From Elusimicrobiaceae bacterium (GTDB lineage: Bacteria; Elusimicrobiota; Elusimicrobia; Elusimicrobiales; Elusimicrobiaceae): a stretch of 64,000 bases of DNA. A model generated the notes under the pieces. That model was not told the DNA's origin. It searched no databases and worked only from the letters and a program-made list of their open reading frames with translations. Of the stretch, positions 21,903 to 62,374 are shown one piece after another. Location: contig JAGCWX010000012.1 in assembly GCA_017961585.1 (NCBI GenBank), positions 1-64,000 of the forward strand, written 5' to 3'. A program made the translations under genes and the position numbers. The number at the start of each line of letters is the position of its first letter. Position 1 is the stretch's first letter.

Positions 21903-21919
21903 TATAATATTGGTATATG
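21903..21919 (+). promoter_or_regulatory. Near-leaderless promoter: TATAAT then 8 nt then ATG
   Basis: TATAAT at 21903-21908 and the ATG at 21917, with no room for a ribosome-binding site. Confidence 0.6.
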
Positions 21920-23707
21920 AATATCCGCAATGCAGCTGCTTTTGCTTTGTTACACGGAATCGGATGGAGTCTGCTTTCCCTGCTGTTTTTTGGGATCAAC
22001 GGTTTTTTTACAGACCCCTTGGGGCTACTTTTTACATTTGCATTTATTTTGGGACATATTTTCCTTTTTGCCTGGATTTTGTGGGGGATCAGTATTCCGT
22101 TTGCTTGGTTGGGCCCGCGTACGTTGCAAGGAGTGTGTGTAGGATTGGGGGGAATTACTTCGCTATTTTTCTGTTTGGATTTGCTGGTCTATTCTCAATA
22201 TCGTTTTCACATTAGTCCGGCGATGTTGGAACTTTTTTTCGGCCCGGCCGGGCGGGAAATTTTTGCTTTTTCTACCGCTATGTGGGTAGGTGCTGTCTTG
22301 GCCATTGTCTTGTTATTTGCGGTTGAAATCACCCTTAGCTTTATAGCCAAACGCTATACCCCGTCCACTCGGTTGATCGTGCGCTTTGGCATAGCGTGGG
22401 GAATTATTTTCTTACTTTATAATGGGCTGTATGCATGGGGAAAATTTGAAATGGTCCCTTCCATTATTTCACAACGTGCGGTACTGCCTTTGGCGAACCC
22501 GCTCTCGGCAAACCGACGCTTGCGCAAGTTAGGTTTTGAACCCAAAAAAGACCCATATGCCACCCCAGCTACCGGCACTTTAAATTACCCGTTGGCTCCG
22601 CTTACGTGCACTGGGAAAGCCCCATTTACAAACGTGCTTATTTTGCTGGTTGATTCTTGGCGTGCGGACAGCGTTACCCCGCAAATTATGCCTAATCTAT
22701 CTGCCCGTTTGGAGCAATCGGGCATCAGCTATTTTACCAATCACCTTTCGGGTGGAAACGCAACCGAGGCGGGGGTATTTTCACTCTTTTATTCGCTCCC
22801 TTATGCCTACTGGAATGATTTTACCAGCCGCCAACTGCCACCCGTGCTTGTCAGCCAAGCACTTGCGCTGGGATACGTACCGGCTATTTATTCCAGCAGT
22901 AAATTAAACAGCCCCACATTCCACCAAAATATTTTTGCTACGGTTCCCAATTTGCGTTTGGAATCTCAAGGTGAAGAAAAATGGCAACGCGACGAAAATG
23001 CCGTACAAGATTTTGAAAAATTTTTAGATACGCGCAACCCGCACGAACCGTTTTTTGGGTTTATTTTTTTAGATGCTCCACACGGTTCCAGCTATCCCGC
23101 GCAGGACGAAATTTTTACCCCGGCGCAAGAAATCAACTACTTATTGGTCAATAAAAATACGGACCCGACCCCGTATTTAAACCGCTACAAAAATGCCGTG
23201 CACTTTACAGACCGCATGATTGAGCGTATCTGGCAAGATTTACAAGCCCGAGGGTTACTGAAAAATACCGTCGTTATAATTTCAGGGGATCACGGTCAGG
23301 AAATCAATGATACCCATCATAACTTTTGGGGACATAACAGCAACTTTGCCAAATATCAAACCCAGGTTCCGTTGCTGGTATGGGACCCGGCACAAAAAGC
23401 GGCAAAAACATTCTCGCACCGTACCACTCATTATGATATTGCCCCTACGCTGCTTGCGCGGCTGTACGGTTGCACCAATCCGGCGCAGGATTATTCCAGC
23501 GGGCAGGACTTATTTGACGAGTCTCCGCGGCCGTTTAGCTTAATTTCCAGCTATACCAAAAAAGCCATCCGCACCGGGAATGATTTAACCGTACTGGACC
23601 AATACGGCGGGGTGGAAATGTACGACGAAAATTTCAACCCTTCTCAGGGGGCAGATCCGCACGTCATTAAAGATGCCCTGTCCGAATTTGCCCGGTTTTA
23701 TAAATAA
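21917..23707 (+). CDS. yejM: YejM/PbgA(LapC)-like inner-membrane sulfatase-fold protein
   Basis: This 596-residue protein has five membrane helices (about residues 5-185) and a periplasmic sulfatase-fold domain (about 235-560). Recognisable YejM-type signatures are NVLILLVDSWRADSVTPQIMPN, SGGNATEAGVFSLFY, PFFGFIFLDAPHGSSYP, YLNRYKNAVHFTDRMI and VVIISGDHGQEINDTHHNFWGHNSNF. In E. coli, YejM senses periplasmic-side LPS and controls LpxC turnover through LapB-FtsH. Metal-site residues of the fold (DS, SGDHG, WGH) are kept here. The start is fixed by a promoter ending 8 nt before the ATG. The same role in this organism is inference. Confidence 0.88.
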   Translation: MNIRNAAAFALLHGIGWSLLSLLFFGINGFFTDPLGLLFTFAFILGHIFLFAWILWGISIPFAWLGPRTLQGVCVGLGGITSLFFCLDLLVYSQYRFHISPAMLELFFGPAGREIFAFSTAMWVGAVLAIVLLFAVEITLSFIAKRYTPSTRLIVRFGIAWGIIFLLYNGLYAWGKFEMVPSIISQRAVLPLANPLSANRRLRKLGFEPKKDPYATPATGTLNYPLAPLTCTGKAPFTNVLILLVDSWRADSVTPQIMPNLSARLEQSGISYFTNHLSGGNATEAGVFSLFYSLPYAYWNDFTSRQLPPVLVSQALALGYVPAIYSSSKLNSPTFHQNIFATVPNLRLESQGEEKWQRDENAVQDFEKFLDTRNPHEPFFGFIFLDAPHGSSYPAQDEIFTPAQEINYLLVNKNTDPTPYLNRYKNAVHFTDRMIERIWQDLQARGLLKNTVVIISGDHGQEINDTHHNFWGHNSNFAKYQTQVPLLVWDPAQKAAKTFSHRTTHYDIAPTLLARLYGCTNPAQDYSSGQDLFDESPRPFSLISSYTKKAIRTGNDLTVLDQYGGVEMYDENFNPSQGADPHVIKDALSEFARFYK

Positions 23708-48323: not shown

Positions 48324-48365
48324 TTTTAATTATGTCTTATATTTTTTGATGGATCTTAAGAATTT

Positions 48366-49169
48366 ATGTTAATATCTCTAACTTTCCAAAAAATCTGTTA
48401 CTTAATTTTATCTCATATTTGCAAAGGCCCCTTGAAAGAAAACTTCAAGAAAAAATACGAAAATTTACAATTTTTGCAAAACAAAGCATTCAATGAATCT
48501 TACTTCGTAATAGGAGATTCTCATACAGATATTTTCCATCGCAATAAAATGGATCAAAAGATGATTATAACAGGCCGTTGAAAAATCCCCGCAAGGACTA
48601 TTTTCTTTAACAAATCAGAACATTTTGTGTGTTATCATATGGGGCCCGTGACAGCATATAACACAAACAACCCACTTGCAACAATCCCATCTATAAAGAA
48701 AATCAAATTTTTAATAAAGCACGGTTTTCTGCCCGAAGGATGCCCCATAATATGCGTATTTGGGGAAATTGATTGCCGCGTCCACATTCAAAAACAAAGT
48801 GAAAAGCAACACCGCCCTATAGAAGAAATTATAGATGATGTGCTTAAAAATTACGAAGCGCTCTTGTTGATGTTAAAAAATAAGGGGTATCACGTAATTG
48901 TTTATGGGCCTATCCCCTCCCAAAGTGACAAAGTAGAGATTGATCCGCTTTTCCCAAGATACGGCACGGAAATTGAACGAAATAAAATCACCAAAGTGTT
49001 TAACCAAAAATTAGAAATTTTATGCAAAAAAGACAATTTAGAATTCAAAACCTTATTCTATACTTTGTTAAACGATGATATGACAACAAAAGATGAATAT
49101 TTAGTAGATCATGTACACTTAAGGGCAGAATCTTTTGAGCTAGTAGAGAAATTATTTTTCTCCAAATAA
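48366..49169 (+). pseudogene. SGNH/GDSL-type hydrolase interrupted by one in-frame UGA
   Basis: Two open segments in the same frame are separated only by TGA at 48579-48581. The first (72 codons) holds block I, FVIGDSHTDIF. The second resumes without a frame change (KIPARTIFFNKSEHFVCYHMGPVTAYN) and holds CVFGEIDCR and the catalytic YLVDHVHLR. Joined, they make one intact enzyme of about 267 residues, similar to SGNH-type proteins found in surface-polysaccharide loci. A TGG-to-TGA or CGA-to-TGA change is the simplest cause. No ribosome-binding site restarts the second half. The region is AT-richer than its neighbours, hinting at transfer. Confidence 0.8.
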
Positions 49170-49247
49170 ATTTTTACTAAAAACTATTCTCCAGCCACGT
49201 TTCTTCGTATATTACAACATTTTCCCAATACATCTATCCTAAAAAGG

Positions 49248-49253
49248 TATAAT
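49248..49253 (+). promoter_or_regulatory. pagP-like gene promoter
   Basis: GGTATAATAG: TATAAT at 49248-49253, with a leader of about 40 nt and no good ribosome-binding site before the ATG at 49301. Confidence 0.55.
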
Positions 49254-49300
49254 AGCGTTTTAGCCGCTTGGCGTATCTTAACAAAATAATTTGTAGATAA

Positions 49301-49837
49301 ATGTACCTTTTGCGCAAATTCAAAATCCTTTACTTCTTAGGATTTAGTTTACTGCTCGCCCCAAATGCTTGGGGTGAAGGCACGTTTGTGCAAAATTGCA
49401 AAGATCGCGTTTCCACTACATGGAAACAAGGACGTTTGGAGTTGATTATCCCCGTCAACACATGGCACAACCGTAGCCACTACAGCCATGAACAAATAGA
49501 AGAATATAACGAACGCCCCTGGGGCGGCGGATTGGCCCTCACTTACACGGATGAACGCGCCAACCGACACCGGCTTTTAGCATTGGTTTTTCAGGATTCG
49601 TTTAATAGCGCGGAGCCCACATTTGGCTATTCGTGGCAGGCGGTATGGTGGGCCGAACATACCATCCGCCCAACGTTGGGATTTGTGGCCGGTGTAACCT
49701 TCCGCCACAGCTATGATTGGGTCCCTATCCCCGCCGCTATTCCCGTAGTAGGGATAGATATTGGGCCGCTATCGGTAGAAACTACTTATCTGCTTGGTTT
49801 TGACGTATTATTTAGCTGGGTCTCTTTTCGGTTTTAA
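49301..49837 (+). CDS. pagP: PagP-like lipid A palmitoyltransferase
   Basis: This 178-residue protein has a signal peptide (about residues 1-25) and an eight-stranded outer-membrane barrel. The match to PagP is strong: STTWKQGRLELIIPVNTWHNR (catalytic His), YNERPWGGGLAL, LLALVFQDSFNSAEPTFGY (catalytic Asp-Ser), RPTLGFVAGVTFR, PLPxxxP-like PIPAAIPVVGIDIG and the C-terminal FSWVSFRF. PagP transfers palmitate from phospholipid to lipid A at the outer leaflet. It is best known from Gammaproteobacteria and a few Betaproteobacteria. The last 30 bp overlap the convergent PAP2 gene. Confidence 0.93.
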   Translation: MYLLRKFKILYFLGFSLLLAPNAWGEGTFVQNCKDRVSTTWKQGRLELIIPVNTWHNRSHYSHEQIEEYNERPWGGGLALTYTDERANRHRLLALVFQDSFNSAEPTFGYSWQAVWWAEHTIRPTLGFVAGVTFRHSYDWVPIPAAIPVVGIDIGPLSVETTYLLGFDVLFSWVSFRF

Positions 49838-50764
49838 AAAAATCCACTTTAGTACAAGCGGATAAAGCGCAACAATATACAACATCAAACCGGCCGACCA
49901 AGCAAACCGTCCCCATTGAGCCCCTAATAGATGTTTGAAGGGCTGATTGGCATACGTAAGGAATAAAAATAACGGCACAAGCCCCGCCAGGCCACAAATA
50001 ATCCCTTTTAAGTGGAGCCCCGTTTCTTTAAAGCAAATCCACGTTTTTTCAATATAACGCGCTGCACAAAACCCCATCAATACGCCCATTCCTTCGAAGG
50101 CACTCTTGAGCATTTTATGCGGATTTACCAATAATTTACCATTTACATAGTCCATAGGATAGGGTTTATAAAGCAGGTAAATGAGTGCCAATATACCGGC
50201 TACGAATACGGCACCCAAACATATATTTTCCTTCTCAGGATGTTTTTGAAAATACGCCCCGGCCTTCCACACAACGCACAAACAAGCAATGCTTAATAAA
50301 AACCCCACACAAACGTCTTGCGGCGTGTGAACCCCTAAGTAATTGCGCGACAAGGGGTTTAAAATAGCCAACAGTACACAAAGCAACGCTAAAATTTTAG
50401 TCCATTTCTTTTGCCAAAGAATCAATGCCGAGCCCAAATAGAGGGGTGTTCCCATAGAGGTATGCCCACTGGGGAACGAATAACTACTCGGCAATGATTT
50501 TACAGCCGGAATAATACGAGGGTCTTTGATCCACGGGCGGTACACACAAGCCGTCAATTTGATCACAGCCGCCACGGCTACACACAAACAAAAAGAAGCT
50601 AGCGTCAGTAAACCGCGCCTTTTATCCCAACACCAGTAAAGAAAGGCCGGCAAAAGGATTAAATACGATACGCTAAACGCAGAAATCCCCTCCATAAGGG
50701 GATTCAACACGCCGTGCGTAGCATCCCTAAAATCTTGCCACCAAAGCAAATAACTAATATCCAT
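49808..50764 (-). CDS. PAP2-family membrane phosphatase
   Basis: This 318-residue polytopic protein carries the three phosphatase motifs: KLTACVYRP (K-x6-RP), FPSGHTSMG and SRNYLGVHTPQD. The C-terminal third adds further helices. Such enzymes dephosphorylate lipids (undecaprenyl-PP, phosphatidate, or lipid A as LpxE/F). The tail-to-tail overlap with pagP suggests a lipid A or lipid-remodelling role, which is inference. It follows the VanX-type gene by 5 bp on the same strand, so the two form an operon. Confidence 0.92.
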   Translation of the reverse strand: MDISYLLWWQDFRDATHGVLNPLMEGISAFSVSYLILLPAFLYWCWDKRRGLLTLASFCLCVAVAAVIKLTACVYRPWIKDPRIIPAVKSLPSSYSFPSGHTSMGTPLYLGSALILWQKKWTKILALLCVLLAILNPLSRNYLGVHTPQDVCVGFLLSIACLCVVWKAGAYFQKHPEKENICLGAVFVAGILALIYLLYKPYPMDYVNGKLLVNPHKMLKSAFEGMGVLMGFCAARYIEKTWICFKETGLHLKGIICGLAGLVPLFLFLTYANQPFKHLLGAQWGRFAWSAGLMLYIVALYPLVLKWIFLKPKRDPAK

Positions 50765-50769
50765 GAAAA

Positions 50770-51447
50770 TTACTCTACATCAAAGTTAAAATATGTGTCC
50801 GGGTAGGGTTCATCTTTGAGTGTAAAATGCCACCATTCCGAATCCAACGGCTTAAACCCGGCATTTACCATAGCATCACGCAGAATTTCCCGGTTCTTTT
50901 TTTGCTTTTTGCTGATTTTTTTGTAGTCGGGGTGTGAAATTTCCGAGAATAAATCAAATGTTCCCCCCATGTCCACAAAGCCCCCGTCTTTTTTAATAAT
51001 TGTTAAATCCACCGTGCTGCCGCGCGTATGGCCGGACTTGGCCATAATATAATCCCCTGCAAGTAGATCCGATTTTTCAAGTTTTGGATAAAAAGTTTTA
51101 TCCCCGGGATTGTTAGGGTCATTGATCCATGCCACAAAATCGTCCACGGCTTTTTGCGGACGGTAAGCATCCCAAATAAGCAGGCGATATCCCTGTGCGC
51201 GCAAATCTTCGGCCGCTTTTGCCAGTGCCGCAAGCGCTTTTTTAGTCATATAAGCACGCGGGGCTTTATAGCCGTTTATTTTGTGCCCCGTAAAGTTATT
51301 GGGTGAATAATAGCGGATATCATACGCTGCGTCATCAATTACGGTACCGATTTGCGCAAAGTCGGATTTATCCGTGGAAATAGTTTCGGCAAAAACAAAC
51401 CCCAAGCAACATACCATCCACACAAGCGTTGTAACCAACTTTTTCAT
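50770..51447 (-). CDS. ddpX: Periplasmic D-Ala-D-Ala dipeptidase (VanX/DdpX type, M15)
   Basis: This 225-residue protein has a signal peptide (KKLVTTLVWMVCCLGFVFA). It has the zinc-site SGHTRGSTVDLT (His and Asp), the catalytic LDSEWWHF (Glu and His) and the conserved Arg in WDAYRPQ. VanX-type enzymes cleave D-Ala-D-Ala. Cytosolic VanX gives vancomycin resistance, while exported homologues such as PcgL or DdpX recycle peptidoglycan dipeptide in the periplasm. The signal peptide and the absence of vanHA genes here favour recycling. GGAGGTAC precedes the ATG. Confidence 0.92.
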   Translation of the reverse strand: MKKLVTTLVWMVCCLGFVFAETISTDKSDFAQIGTVIDDAAYDIRYYSPNNFTGHKINGYKAPRAYMTKKALAALAKAAEDLRAQGYRLLIWDAYRPQKAVDDFVAWINDPNNPGDKTFYPKLEKSDLLAGDYIMAKSGHTRGSTVDLTIIKKDGGFVDMGGTFDLFSEISHPDYKKISKKQKKNREILRDAMVNAGFKPLDSEWWHFTLKDEPYPDTYFNFDVE

Positions 51448-51578
51448 GTTGTACCTCCTAACTCAGATAGAATAAATATATCAAAAATAGTAAAAGCACA
51501 CAAATCTTTTAATTACCCTAATAGAAAAAATGCTACAATTCTTTGTGTTTTTATTTAAGGGTAATAGGAAACAAAAAT

Positions 51579-52235
51579 ATGAAAAAAATTATTCTCTCAT
51601 TGGCTACATTGTTTCTTTGCGTGCCGGTTTTTGCCGAACTTACCCAAAGCCAGCACATGGTAGGAGGCCGGTTGGGGCTTGGATTTCAGCTGGAAAACTC
51701 CGGCATTTCTTACTCCGATTATGACCGCGTGGATTGGGGATCTCTCGGAGCGGAATATGGACTGTCCTACTATTATCTGCTGACGAATCATGTGGGACTG
51801 GGAACTGAAATATCCTATGCTGAATTTGATGGCGGAGAGTTATTTGTTTCTAACGATAAAGTAAGTGATGAAACAAAATTATTTAACGCCATGCTTGCGG
51901 CCCGTTTTACGGCCAATCCTTCCAATCTAGTCCGATTGTATATGCCGGTAGGGCTTGGCCTTACTGTCGCTCGGCAAAATATGTCTGTTAGAAAGAATGG
52001 GATAGACTACGCCAAAAAAGAGACTGACACCTCCCTGGGGTGGTTTGTGGGAGCTGGTGTAGAGTTTGACTTGGGACGCAAAAGCGAATGGTCCATGGGC
52101 TTTGAAACGCGCTACAACATGTTTCACTATGATACAGAAAAACTAACACACAACGCCCCTAATGGCATTACGGGAGATGGGAACCGTCGCTTAAGTTATA
52201 TGTCGTTCCATGTGCAAGTAAATAAACGGTTTTAA
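51579..52235 (+). CDS. Outer-membrane beta-barrel protein (OMP_b-brl type)
   Basis: This 218-residue protein has a signal peptide (KKIILSLATLFLCVPVFA). Alternating strands (VGGRLGLGFQLENSGISYS, GLGTEISYAEF, AMLAARFTAN, GWFVGAGVEFDL, MGFETRYNMF) end in FHVQVNKRF, with a terminal Phe as BAM signal. About eight strands are expected. No specific function can be assigned. The frame is open from 51543, but the ATG at 51579 gives a proper signal peptide. AATAGGAAAC is a weak ribosome-binding site. Confidence 0.85.
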   Translation: MKKIILSLATLFLCVPVFAELTQSQHMVGGRLGLGFQLENSGISYSDYDRVDWGSLGAEYGLSYYYLLTNHVGLGTEISYAEFDGGELFVSNDKVSDETKLFNAMLAARFTANPSNLVRLYMPVGLGLTVARQNMSVRKNGIDYAKKETDTSLGWFVGAGVEFDLGRKSEWSMGFETRYNMFHYDTEKLTHNAPNGITGDGNRRLSYMSFHVQVNKRF

Positions 52236-59158: not shown

Positions 59159-59175
59159 TATAATTTATAAATATG
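59159..59175 (+). promoter_or_regulatory. Near-leaderless promoter of the mla operon
   Basis: TATAAT at 59159-59164, 8 nt, then the ATG at 59173. The only purine-rich stretch is more than 20 nt upstream and too far to act as a ribosome-binding site. Confidence 0.55.
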
Positions 59176-60258
59176 ATTGAAATCAAAACGAAGGGCGACT
59201 GCGTAATCTGTATTTTGGAAGGTGTTCTCAATGGGACAGAACACATAGATGTGTCCGCTTCGCAAGTGAGCAATAAAAAAATACAGCTGGTGGGGCAGAA
59301 TATTGATTCTTGGAATACGGACTTTGTCATTACCCTTTTTAACGCTTTCAAGCAGGTTTCTAAAGAAAATATCACTTATTCAAATTTACCCAAGGGCATG
59401 GAACAATTGCTACGGCTTGCCTTCCAAACGCCCTACAAAGAAGAAGAAAATCCCCCCCAAAAACTCCCCTTTTTAGAATTTATCGGCGAATATGGCCTCC
59501 GCTTTTGCCGCAGTGTCAAAAAAGGGACTATGTTTATCCGTGAGTGTTTATCTTCTTGGGGTAGGCAACTAATCGGGAAAGCTGTTTACCGCAGCAAAGA
59601 TTTTTGGATGATTTTGGCCGATTGTGGCCCTAAATCTATTTTGATTGTATCTCTCATCAGTTTTATGGTCGGGCTCATTTTGGCCTTTGTAGGCGCTATA
59701 CAGCTCAAAACCTTTGGCGCACAAATTTATGTGGCTAGCTTGGTTACTATCGGTATGACGCGTATTATGGGTGCCATTATGACAGGGGTTATCATGGCCG
59801 GCCGCACGGGTGCTTCCTATGCCGCTACAATCGGCACTATGCAAGTCAACGAAGAGCTTGACGCCCTGCAAACCATGGGGATTTCCCGTACTGATTTTTT
59901 GGTTCTGCCGCGTATGAATGCGTTGCTACTATCTATGCCTATTTTGATTTTACTCTCGGACATTATGGGCATTGTAGGTGGTTGTTTTGTGTGCGTGCTG
60001 TTTTGGGACATTCCTCTGGCAGAGTATATCAAATATGCCGTCAATTCATTTTATTTAACAAATTTCCTCGTGGGCGTTTTCCACGGTATTGTTTTTGGGC
60101 TTATCATTGCCTTATGTGGATGCTATTTTGGCGTAAATTGTGGACGTAATGCCGACAGCGTGGGCACCGCCACCACCCAGGCCGTAGTATATGCCATTGT
60201 GTGGATGATTGTGATGACGGGCATCCTTACAGCCATTTGTGAAGGGTTGGGGGTCTGA
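59173..60258 (+). CDS. mlaE: MlaE-type lipid ABC permease with fused N-terminal STAS-like domain
   Basis: This 361-residue protein has a cytoplasmic STAS-like domain (residues 1-85, MIEIKTKGDCVICILEGVLNG onwards), which in the E. coli Mla system is the separate protein MlaB. The MlaE permease follows (about 120-361): GLILAFVGAIQLKTFGAQIYVA, MTGVIMAGRTGASYAATIGTMQVNEELDALQTMGI and LFWDIPLAEYIKYA. It moves phospholipids between inner and outer membranes. The stop overlaps mlaF by one base (TGATG). Confidence 0.95.
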   Translation: MIEIKTKGDCVICILEGVLNGTEHIDVSASQVSNKKIQLVGQNIDSWNTDFVITLFNAFKQVSKENITYSNLPKGMEQLLRLAFQTPYKEEENPPQKLPFLEFIGEYGLRFCRSVKKGTMFIRECLSSWGRQLIGKAVYRSKDFWMILADCGPKSILIVSLISFMVGLILAFVGAIQLKTFGAQIYVASLVTIGMTRIMGAIMTGVIMAGRTGASYAATIGTMQVNEELDALQTMGISRTDFLVLPRMNALLLSMPILILLSDIMGIVGGCFVCVLFWDIPLAEYIKYAVNSFYLTNFLVGVFHGIVFGLIIALCGCYFGVNCGRNADSVGTATTQAVVYAIVWMIVMTGILTAICEGLGV

Positions 60259-61019
60259 TGAAACAAGATCCTATGATTCGCGTAAAAAATTTAAGTATCG
60301 GGTATGATGGCAAGGTCATCATGAAGGATCTATCGTTTGATATCTCCAAGGGTGATATCTTTATCATCATGGGCGGATCCGGCTGCGGAAAGAGCACCCT
60401 GTTACGCACACTTACAGGCCTTATTCCCGCGCAATCCGGTCAAATTTGGATACAGGGTATAGATTTCATCAATACCAATTCAAAAGAGAAATTAGAAATC
60501 ATGAAGCATAGTGGCATTTTGTATCAAAGCGGTGCGCTGTTTAGCTCCATGACATTGGCGGAAAACGTAGCTCTCCCCCTCCAGCAATACACTTCTTATT
60601 CACAAGATAAAATTAGTCAAATTGTGGCTTTTAAACTGGCTTTGGTGGGGCTATCGGGTTACGAGGATTATTATCCTTCCGAAATCAGCGGTGGGATGCG
60701 CAAACGCGCGGGACTGGCACGAGCATTGGCATTAGACCCCGAGATTGTTTATTTTGATGAACCCTCTGCCGGATTAGATCCCGTCAGTTCCAAAAATTTG
60801 GACGATTTGATATTAGAAATTAACAGAACGTTGGGTACCACCATTATTGTGGTAACGCATGAGTTGTCTTCTATTTTTTCTATCGGGAAAAACAGCATTT
60901 TCTTGGATAAAACCGTCCGTACCATATCGGCCAAGGGGAATCCAAACGAATTGTTGAAAAATCCCCCCAACCAGCAGGTCTATGAATTTTTAACAAGAGG
61001 AGCACAGTATGAAAAATGA
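60258..61019 (+). CDS. mlaF: MlaF-type ABC ATPase
   Basis: This 253-residue ATPase powers the Mla lipid transporter. Walker A GGSGCGKST is near residue 36, the Q-loop in GILYQSGALFSSMT, signature ISGGMRKRAGLARAL, Walker B IVYFDEPSAGLDP and the switch His in VVTHELSS. It starts inside the mlaE stop and ends 11 bp into mlaD, so the three are tightly coupled. Confidence 0.96.
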   Translation: MKQDPMIRVKNLSIGYDGKVIMKDLSFDISKGDIFIIMGGSGCGKSTLLRTLTGLIPAQSGQIWIQGIDFINTNSKEKLEIMKHSGILYQSGALFSSMTLAENVALPLQQYTSYSQDKISQIVAFKLALVGLSGYEDYYPSEISGGMRKRAGLARALALDPEIVYFDEPSAGLDPVSSKNLDDLILEINRTLGTTIIVVTHELSSIFSIGKNSIFLDKTVRTISAKGNPNELLKNPPNQQVYEFLTRGAQYEK

Positions 61020-61800
61020 ACCAAATAGGAAAGCAATTGGACTATTTTTAATCGTCGGATTTGCATTATTTTTGGGGTTGATCGGGCATTCCATCCTCTC
61101 CAAAATACACGCAGATACACGCAATATGGTTGTTATGTATTTTAACGAATCATTGCAAGGGTTATCCGAGGGATCCTCTATCGTTTTTCAGGGGGTAGAG
61201 GTCGGCAAAGTGACCCGTATTTTGCTAGTAACCGACAAAAATAATTTAAAATTCAAGGTGGCTGTGTATGCCCGCTTAAAACAAATCGGCATTATGAGCG
61301 AGGGTTCTATTTTAGATAAATTTTGGAAGAAAGATAATTTACTGGGCACTTTAGTGGGGCATGGGCTTCGCGCCCGAATTGCCACCCAAAGTTATTTGAC
61401 GGGACAACTGATGATTGAATTAGTTATGCTCCCGGGCACGAAAGCACAAATTGAATATCAAAAAAATGATGACTTTCCTCAAATTCCGACCGTTTTATCC
61501 AAGAGAGAAGAATTGGCCCGTGGGTTAGACGCTCTCAAAGTGCAAGAAATGATGGATCGGTTTAATCACGTCACGGAAGTATTGGGAAAAGAACTGCCCG
61601 TCTTATTGCCGGCCCTAACAAAAAGTTCTCAAAACTTGGATCAAACCCTAGCAAAAGTGGCCCAAAGCAGCGACGAAACCATTTCCAATTTAAACGAAAC
61701 GTTACACGAAGTTTCCGACGCCGCCAAATCGTTCCAGAATTTGACTGATTATTTGGAAAGACATCCGGAATCTTTACTCAAAGGAAAGAAAGGAGAATAA
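61009..61800 (+). CDS. mlaD: MCE-domain lipid-transport protein MlaD
   Basis: This 263-residue protein has one N-terminal membrane helix (AIGLFLIVGFALFLGLIGHSI), an MCE domain (about residues 40-120, VVMYFNESLQGLSEGSSIVFQGVEVGKVTRI) and a long helical tail (155-255). It forms the periplasmic hexameric ring that holds lipid for the Mla system. AGAGGAG precedes the ATG. The tail is longer than in E. coli MlaD and may bridge more of the periplasm. Followed after 1 bp by the auxiliary lipoprotein gene. Confidence 0.94.
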   Translation: MKNEPNRKAIGLFLIVGFALFLGLIGHSILSKIHADTRNMVVMYFNESLQGLSEGSSIVFQGVEVGKVTRILLVTDKNNLKFKVAVYARLKQIGIMSEGSILDKFWKKDNLLGTLVGHGLRARIATQSYLTGQLMIELVMLPGTKAQIEYQKNDDFPQIPTVLSKREELARGLDALKVQEMMDRFNHVTEVLGKELPVLLPALTKSSQNLDQTLAKVAQSSDETISNLNETLHEVSDAAKSFQNLTDYLERHPESLLKGKKGE

Positions 61801-61801
61801 T

Positions 61802-62374
61802 ATGCGACTACTAAAAATCATCATCCCTTGTTTGTTACTCGGTGCCTGCTTTTGGGGAACCAGCCAAAATGCTAAATTTTACACACAATCCGCTACTGCC
61901 ACCCAAACGCTTTCTTCGGATTATGTTGCTTTTGTAGGGGTCAATCGGGTTCAACTGCCTAGATTTATGGATCGTCCGCAAATACTAACGCAGGTGAAGG
62001 ATTCTTCGCAAGTGAATATATCCGAATATAACCGCTGGGTAGAATTGCCCTCTGTTTTAGCAACGCGGGTATTAACGGAGGATTTGGGTATACTTCTCCC
62101 TGCCGCGCAAATCAAAATGAATCAGTTCCAAGGGGAAGGGTTTGATCGGGTCGTCTCCGTAGAAGTGATTGAGATGAATGCTATTTTGGGTGATAAAGCC
62201 GAGCTTGTGGCGTGGTACACTGTTAAAAACAATTCCACCAAAAAGATACTCACCCGTCAAAAATTTGAAAGCACGATGGAAATTGGCAAAACATACGACG
62301 ATTTAGCTCAAGGTTACAGCACATTATTGGCCCAATTAAGTCAGGAAATTGCTAGTGTTTTAATAAAAAAATAA
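61802..62374 (+). CDS. ABC-transport auxiliary lipoprotein (PqiC/YmbA-like)
   Basis: This 190-residue protein has a lipoprotein signal (IIPCLLLGACFWG, lipidated Cys near residue 17). KFYTQSATATQ, VAFVGVNRVQLPRFMDRPQILTQVKDSSQVNISEYNRWVELP and a later ILLPAAQIK/FQGEGFDRVVSVEVIEM region match the PqiC/ABC-type auxiliary family. Such lipoproteins work at the outer membrane with MCE transporters. In this operon it takes the place of MlaA or MlaC, neither of which is seen nearby. It ends before a large stem-loop. Confidence 0.9.
   Translation: MRLLKIIIPCLLLGACFWGTSQNAKFYTQSATATQTLSSDYVAFVGVNRVQLPRFMDRPQILTQVKDSSQVNISEYNRWVELPSVLATRVLTEDLGILLPAAQIKMNQFQGEGFDRVVSVEVIEMNAILGDKAELVAWYTVKNNSTKKILTRQKFESTMEIGKTYDDLAQGYSTLLAQLSQEIASVLIKK

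What the first reader, a model, noticed from the sequence alone, without database searches (positions are those of the whole stretch)
49301..50764. PagP homologue overlapping a PAP2 phosphatase gene tail to tail
The PagP barrel keeps the His, Asp and Ser of the active site and the YNERPWGGG motif. PagP is known mainly from Gammaproteobacteria and a few Betaproteobacteria. The two genes share their last 30 bp in opposite directions. Together with yejM and mla genes this suggests lipid A remodelling and possible lateral transfer.
Basis: partly seen in the sequence, partly recalled or inferred. Interest (0 to 1): 0.65.

Follow-up and report, generated by a model that had tools for sequence, protein, structure and literature searches.

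The report
Sparse outer-membrane PagP enzyme in Elusimicrobium
A gut bacterium from a phylum where this gene is very rare carries a plausible, selectively maintained copy of PagP, an outer-membrane enzyme that adds a fatty acid to the lipid anchor of endotoxin; its 30-base overlap with the next gene looks incidental.

Summary
In detail: an intact 178-aa PagP-family ORF (49301-49837, +) and a PAP2 phosphatase ORF (49808-50764, -) end tail to tail with 30 shared bases. The protein passes Pfam's PagP cut-off and its predicted fold matches PagP crystals best, but it misses NCBI's stricter PagP cut-off (146.3 against 155). The genome is in the genus of a MAG labelled Elusimicrobium and has LpxC and KdtA genes. 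PagP is in 5 of 340 Elusimicrobiota genomes: three of this genus, two of another.

The overlap is not the interesting part: it falls in PAP2's unconserved tail and is absent in the other two carriers of the genus. Instead, in all three carriers pagP lies within 10 kb of an accessory mlaE-F-D-lipoprotein operon found in 15 of 66 genomes of the genus. Carriers are not one GroEL clade, so pagP was lost or moved repeatedly. A proteobacterial origin is plausible; the donor is unresolved. The acyl-length ruler residue, Gly in E. coli, is Ser here, predicting a chain shorter than palmitate (inferred). New member of a known kind.

The parts
49301..49837 (+). PagP-family outer-membrane protein, 178 aa; signal-peptide-like N-terminus, helix about 29-43, then a beta barrel
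   Evidence: the signal peptide is read from the sequence, not tested
49808..50764 (-). PAP2-family membrane phosphatase, 318 aa, with K-x6-RP / PSGH / SR-x5-H motifs read from the sequence
49808..49837 (.). 30-bp tail-to-tail overlap: last strand of the PagP barrel against the variable PAP2 C-terminal tail
49238..49300 (+). Upstream block alignable with the G054 pagP upstream region; holds TATAAT at 49248-49253; possible promoter, untested
   Evidence: not listed by the consensus scan and poorly kept in G019
50770..51447 (-). Peptidase M15 (D-Ala-D-Ala dipeptidase family), recurrent neighbour in congeners
51543..52235 (+). Outer-membrane beta-barrel protein (OMP_b-brl), near pagP in all three carriers of the genus
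59173..60258 (+). Accessory MlaE-family permease (361 aa; N-terminal part without a Pfam hit)
60258..61019 (+). ABC ATPase (MlaF position)
61009..61800 (+). MlaD/MCE-domain protein
61802..62374 (+). ABC_trans_aux lipoprotein of the same operon

Best explanation
The gene encodes a working PagP-type outer-membrane acyltransferase of an Elusimicrobium species. It most likely takes an acyl chain from phospholipids that stray into the outer leaflet and puts it on lipid A (or another acceptor such as phosphatidylglycerol), which tightens the membrane under stress. The lineage got it, probably from Pseudomonadota, before its present carriers diverged; it has since been kept in an accessory neighbourhood of outer-membrane genes near a second Mla-type phospholipid transporter and lost or moved many times. 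Shown: family, predicted fold, key residues, lipid A and Kdo genes, recurrent neighbourhood, selection. Inferred: enzyme activity, acceptor, donor lineage, functional link with Mla, and a chain shorter than C16 from the Ser ruler residue. The overlap with PAP2 is an incidental result of close packing.
For: Family: Pfam 134.5 bits against 24. Structure: AlphaFold2 mean pLDDT 80.9; best PDB matches are the two PagP crystals, VIA-align Z 19.2 (rmsd 2.5, 146 aligned) and 17.7 (rmsd 2.5, 138 aligned), next row 13.8; PagP entries are the only Foldseek hits at E 0.001 or less. Key residues kept. Envelope: LpxC in 9 of the 10 genomes searched, the nine being all the Elusimicrobiota among them; Kdo transferase family in 10 of 10 Elusimicrobiota; LpxL-like acyltransferase in the own genome, two matches, one weak. 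Selection: dN 0.16-0.25 against saturated dS 1.5-2.1. Neighbourhood: pagP within 10 kb of the accessory mla operon in 3 of 3 carriers of the genus; pagP in 3 of 15 mla-2 genomes and 0 of 51 others, hypergeometric 0.0099, not corrected for kinship. Gain/loss: a single clade of carriers is rejected on a GroEL tree, p-AU 1.5e-12; G055, near G019, has the HAD gene between M15 and OMP_b-brl without pagP.
Against: NCBIfam PagP equivalog cut-off missed (146.3 against 155). Three positions differ from E. coli: Tyr70 to Leu (5 of 5 Elusimicrobiota rows, 0 of 24 others), Gly88 to Ser/Thr, Pro144 to Leu/Ile with a shortened loop in the three rows of this genus. No LpxL-like gene was found in carriers G054, G040 and G118. 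The NMR PagP structure 1mm4 matches the model only at Z 8.5. The donor is unresolved: in the full tree the two Elusimicrobiota groups join at 89/92 with a long-branch warning and are placed apart when tested alone. 12 of 15 mla-2 genomes have no pagP, and in Klebsiella lipid A palmitoylation by PagP did not change on loss of mlaC (PMC9403492, passages), so the Mla link may not be functional.
Confidence: 0.8

Rival explanations
1. It keeps the PagP fold but has changed substrate: it uses a shorter acyl chain and/or acylates an acceptor other than lipid A. (Not exclusive with the best explanation, which leaves chain and acceptor open.)
For: Gly88 of E. coli is Ser in the window and Ser/Thr in 5 of 5 Elusimicrobiota rows; Tyr70 is Leu in all five and in no other of 29 rows. 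NCBIfam equivalog cut-off missed. Three carriers show no LpxL-like gene. PagP of Klebsiella also acylates phosphatidylglycerol (PMC9403492, passages).
Against: Position 88 varies widely in PagP-family rows (G 9, A 11, S 5, T 1, M 1, L 2 of 29), so a non-Gly residue is not special to this phylum. Active-site residues and lipid A genes are present.
Confidence: 0.35
2. The tail-to-tail overlap is a functional device: pagP and the PAP2 gene regulate each other through antisense transcripts and form one lipid-phosphate/lipid A module.
For: The 30-bp overlap is real and the only overlapping pair of 10 convergent ones listed.
Against: In G054 and G019 the closest PAP2 relatives are not beside pagP; the overlapped PAP2 tail is unconserved in length and sequence in the 10 PAP2 sequences aligned.
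Confidence: 0.04
3. The gene is a contaminant or misassembly in this MAG.
For: MAG in 36 contigs; rare family in the phylum (5 of 340).
Against: Two other MAGs of the genus carry it next to orthologous mla and OMP_b-brl genes; its G+C is not out of line for the window.
Confidence: 0.02

Closest known systems
E. coli PagP / CrcA (PDB 1thq, 3gp6, 1mm4), lipid A palmitoyltransferase
   Same: Predicted fold, helix before the barrel, His33/Asp76/Ser77, YNERPWGGG, Pro28/Pro50/Pro127
   Different: Ser at the ruler position 88, Leu at 70, Leu at 144 with a shorter loop; Elusimicrobiota host; lies near an mla-type operon
PagP of uncultured Alphaproteobacteria (L016, L008, L011) and of Methylotenera-type Betaproteobacteria
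   Same: 40-44% (alpha) and 34-46% (beta) identity; L016 is the nearest row outside the phylum by path on the tree
   Different: L016 passes the NCBIfam cut-off (225.8), the window protein does not; the flanks of L008, L011 and L016 are unlike the window's (beta flanks not compared). Grouping with L016 is neither shown nor rejected (p-AU 0.31)
PagP-like proteins of another Elusimicrobiota genus (G040, G118)
   Same: Same Pfam family, Leu70 and Ser/Thr88
   Different: Longer N-terminal region, different neighbours (symporter- and LemA-like ORFs by eye), 41/38% identity; a common origin with the window gene is unsure
PagL (PDB 2erv), lipid A deacylase
   Same: Outer-membrane barrel, VIA-align Z 13.2, rmsd 2.5 over 120 residues
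   Different: 10% identity; Pfam lists only PagP for the window protein up to E 10

Membership tests
PagP family (Pfam PF07017) | Score over the curated Pfam cut-off | tested here: met
   134.5 bits against 24
PagP family (Pfam PF07017) | His33, Asp76, Ser77 (E. coli numbering; role recalled) | tested here: met
   kept in 29 of 29 rows
PagP family (Pfam PF07017) | Eight-stranded barrel with N-terminal amphipathic helix | tested here: met
   Predicted model only: helix 29-43, strands from 45; PDB 3gp6 Z 19.2, rmsd 2.5, 146 aligned
NCBIfam NF008271 lipid IV(A) palmitoyltransferase PagP (equivalog) | Score over the curated equivalog cut-off | tested here: not met
   146.3 bits against 155; so it is not filed as this equivalog
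NCBIfam NF008271 lipid IV(A) palmitoyltransferase PagP (equivalog) | Gly at ruler position 88 for C16 selection (recalled from Ahn et al. 2004, not held) | tested here: not met
   Ser in the window
NCBIfam NF008271 lipid IV(A) palmitoyltransferase PagP (equivalog) | Palmitoyl transfer to lipid A | not testable with these tools
   Needs biochemistry or lipid mass spectrometry
PAP2 superfamily (Pfam PF01569) | Score over cut-off | tested here: met
   70.1 bits against 27.2
PAP2 superfamily (Pfam PF01569) | Substrate (undecaprenyl diphosphate, PGP, lipid A phosphate) | not testable with these tools
   The three NCBIfam equivalogs listed are all far under cut-off
Mla-type transport operon | MlaE permease, ATPase, MlaD/MCE protein and auxiliary lipoprotein side by side | tested here: met
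   the NCBIfam MlaE and MlaD cut-offs are not met
YejM/LapC (NCBIfam NF038282) | Score over cut-off | tested here: not met
   194.9 against 825 for window 21917-23707

The most novel reading that the evidence does not exclude
Elusimicrobiota carry a PagP sub-type (Leu70, Ser/Thr88) that transfers a chain shorter than palmitate, and in Elusimicrobium it works as a unit with an accessory Mla-type phospholipid transporter: one pulls stray phospholipids back, the other uses them to acylate the outer leaflet.
Probability: 0.2. Interest if true: 0.55.

Novelty: new member of a known kind. Interest (0 to 1): 0.37.

Why it matters
It extends a well-studied lipid A modification enzyme to a gut phylum; a search of the held papers for both 'PagP' and 'Elusimicrobi' found none. 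If active, such bacteria could change the acylation of their endotoxin, which bears on tolerance of antimicrobial peptides and on how the host senses them (established for PagP elsewhere, from general knowledge). The recurrent nearness to an accessory Mla-type operon makes a link between phospholipid retrieval and lipid A acylation testable.

Tried and rejected
Overlap as a conserved device: rejected, because it is not seen in the other two carriers of the genus and the PAP2 tail is unconserved. Contamination: rejected. Mobile carriage: tblastn found no match in 50,697 phage records and a scan of viral contigs confirmed none of 9 candidate stretches; 143 plasmid records matched, all under 60% identity, most from Pantoea, Klebsiella and Citrobacter, so no direct vehicle was found. 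A specific donor: not resolved. Foreign base composition: pagP has G+C 0.488 (third positions 0.514), above its near neighbours PAP2, M15 and OMP_b-brl (0.44; 0.446-0.464) but below groEL (0.506; 0.554); this shows nothing either way. A search of E. coli genomes with Yersinia pagP DNA gave nothing. Papers: the source papers on the PagP ruler and lateral gates (PMC514935, PMC5007123, PMC5007129) are not held, so statements on the roles of Gly88, Tyr70, Pro144 and the catalytic residues are from recall; the numbering came from an alignment. Searches for PagP with Gly88 and for PagP with 'lipid A modification' and rumen found no paper. Seen as listings only. Seen as passages: PMC7617971, PMC11131202, PMC9403492, PMC8168481, PMC2887491.

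Rows dropped before the PagP tree of 29 rows: L067, L081 and L019 as duplicates of L016, L013 and L005; L001 and L004, copies of the window; the partial hit L017; and the weak gammaproteobacterial hits L085-L095 (11 of the 15 genomes). Of 66 genomes of the genus 40 went into the GroEL tree, 14 of the 15 mla-2 carriers among them; G076, the other, had no GroEL match.

Full report
Observation. The window holds an ORF of 178 aa at 49301-49837 (+) and one of 318 aa at 49808-50764 (-) that share bases 49808-49837. The first is a PagP-family protein (Pfam 134.5 bits against 24; the only PDB sequence hits up to E 1 are PagP entries); the second a PAP2-family protein.

Which organism. The window lies in G000:C32 of a 1.49-Mb assembly in 36 contigs, 98.03% complete, 1.63% contaminated. 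The best of 13 loci in a scan of genome contigs, 76% identical, is in a record titled uncultured Elusimicrobium sp. RUG14410. The same-genus genome G054 has an identical PagP on a contig of the same length, 38,266 bases, so I take G054 to be that MAG and the window's genus to be the one labelled Elusimicrobium; that step is inference.

Distribution. PF07017 was found in 5 of 340 Elusimicrobiota genomes: G000, G054 and G019 of this genus and G040 and G118 of one other genus of the same order; in 9 of 385 genomes of the class of an alphaproteobacterial MAG; and in 15 of 369 genomes of the class of a Methylotenera MAG, 11 of them weak matches. The centres of the last two draws were chosen because they have PagP.

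Protein anatomy. In an alignment of 29 rows the window keeps H33, D76, S77, YNERPWGGG, P28, P50 and P127 of E. coli PagP. It differs at position 70 (Leu; Leu in all five Elusimicrobiota rows, Phe in two rows, Tyr in the other 22), at 88 (Ser; over the 29 rows G 9, A 11, S 5, T 1, M 1, L 2) and at 144 (Leu; not Pro in 9 of 29 rows, the three of this genus and six of seven beta rows), with a shorter loop there. From recall, Gly88 forms the floor of the pocket that measures palmitate, so Ser predicts a somewhat shorter chain; this is inference, and the variability of the site in other rows tempers it. The AlphaFold2 model (13-row alignment, mean pLDDT 80.9) matches PagP crystals best, Z 19.2 (rmsd 2.5, 146 aligned) and 17.7 (rmsd 2.5, 138 aligned); the next row is 13.8, and the PagP NMR entry 1mm4 comes at 8.5. 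The stricter NCBIfam equivalog cut-off is missed by 8.7 bits, while the alphaproteobacterial relative L016 passes.

Does the cell make lipid A? LpxC was found in 9 of 10 genomes searched; the nine are all the Elusimicrobiota among them and the miss is the alphaproteobacterial MAG G342. The Kdo transferase family was found in 10 of 10 Elusimicrobiota. An LpxL-like acyltransferase is in G000 (two matches, one weak), G019, G011 and G061 but was not found in carriers G054, G040 and G118. So the substrate pathway seems to be there, though its acylation pattern may differ among carriers.

Neighbourhood. In G054 pagP stands 444 bases before an mlaE-type gene on the same strand; in G019 it is followed on the same strand by a HAD gene, an OMP_b-brl gene, a small ORF and the mla-type operon, 2.3 kb away; in the window the operon begins 9.3 kb downstream of pagP on the same strand. 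This mlaE (361 aa) is an accessory second copy: 15 of 66 genomes of the genus have it at 66-100% identity (in G018 in two pieces), and the other matches are a shorter paralogue, or pieces of it, at 41% or less. pagP is in 3 of these 15 and in none of the other 51 (one search is taken to cover all 66), hypergeometric 0.0099, not corrected for kinship. Around mla-2 several of the same genes (M15, DHOD, HAD, OMP_b-brl, macro-domain, permease) recur in varying order in G075, G015, G055, G004, G011 and partly G087, so this is a reshuffled accessory region. Against that, in G092, G069, G076 and G018 (L130, L134-L136) these neighbours are not seen in the stretch fetched; three of the 12 stretches are contigs under 9 kb.

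Evolution. On a GroEL DNA tree of 40 genomes of the genus the three pagP carriers are not one clade (p-AU 1.5e-12; one gene only). G055, a near relative of G019 with the same mla-2, has the HAD gene between OMP_b-brl and M15 and no pagP. The three PagPs of the genus form one clade (100/99) with low dN against saturated dS. I read this as one old acquisition followed by loss or movement within the genus; repeated gain is not excluded. The wider placement is unresolved: Elusimicrobiota rows join at 89/92 under a long-branch warning; with the other group left out, the window clade is placed openly among alpha, beta and gamma rows, and with the window clade left out the other group goes with E. 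coli and two alpha rows at 87/78.

The overlap. The ten PAP2 sequences aligned share a conserved core that ends with a YP motif and a few residues; the tail after it differs in length and sequence. The overlap lies in that tail. In G019 the closest PAP2 relative sits on another contig with M15 and DHOD genes, in G054 about 15.5 kb away on the same contig. So the overlap is best seen as incidental.

Literature. PMC11131202 (passages) states that PagP takes palmitate from outer-leaflet phospholipids and that loss of mlaA raises lipid A palmitoylation in E. coli; PMC9403492 (passages) reports PagP-dependent acylation of PG and lipid A in Klebsiella and no dependence of the latter on MlaC. No held paper has both PagP and Elusimicrobi; most subscription papers are not held, so this does not show absence from print.

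Verdict. A PagP-family enzyme gene in a phylum where it is rare, maintained by selection and placed near an accessory Mla-type locus. Activity, acceptor and chain length are unknown. New member of a known kind, interest 0.37.

Noticed in passing
window 48360-49169 (+): An SGNH/GDSL-hydrolase-like gene seems broken: two ORFs in the same frame (48360-48581, with a GDSH motif by eye, and 48582-49169, a weak Lipase_GDSL_2 hit under its cut-off) are separated by a stop codon. G+C of 48627-49169 is 0.35 against 0.448 for the window, so it may be a decaying foreign insert.
   Followed up: partly
window 59173-62374 and L126-L137: A second, accessory mlaE-F-D-lipoprotein operon is present in 15 of 66 genomes of the genus, in several of them in a neighbourhood whose genes are reshuffled between species.
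   Followed up: partly
G439 (L070, L074): One alphaproteobacterial-class genome carries two diverged PagP genes that group with E. coli PagP on the tree (99/99).
   Followed up: no
L071, L072, L073: Three PagPs of the alphaproteobacterial class have Met or Leu at the acyl-ruler position, which would predict a much shorter acyl chain (role of the site recalled).
   Followed up: no
G342 (L016): This PagP-bearing alphaproteobacterial MAG gave no LpxC match although a Kdo transferase is present; perhaps an incomplete assembly (its completeness is not told).
   Followed up: partly
G062:C140:2275-3964: GroEL appears as two adjoining pieces in this MAG, perhaps an assembly error.
   Followed up: no
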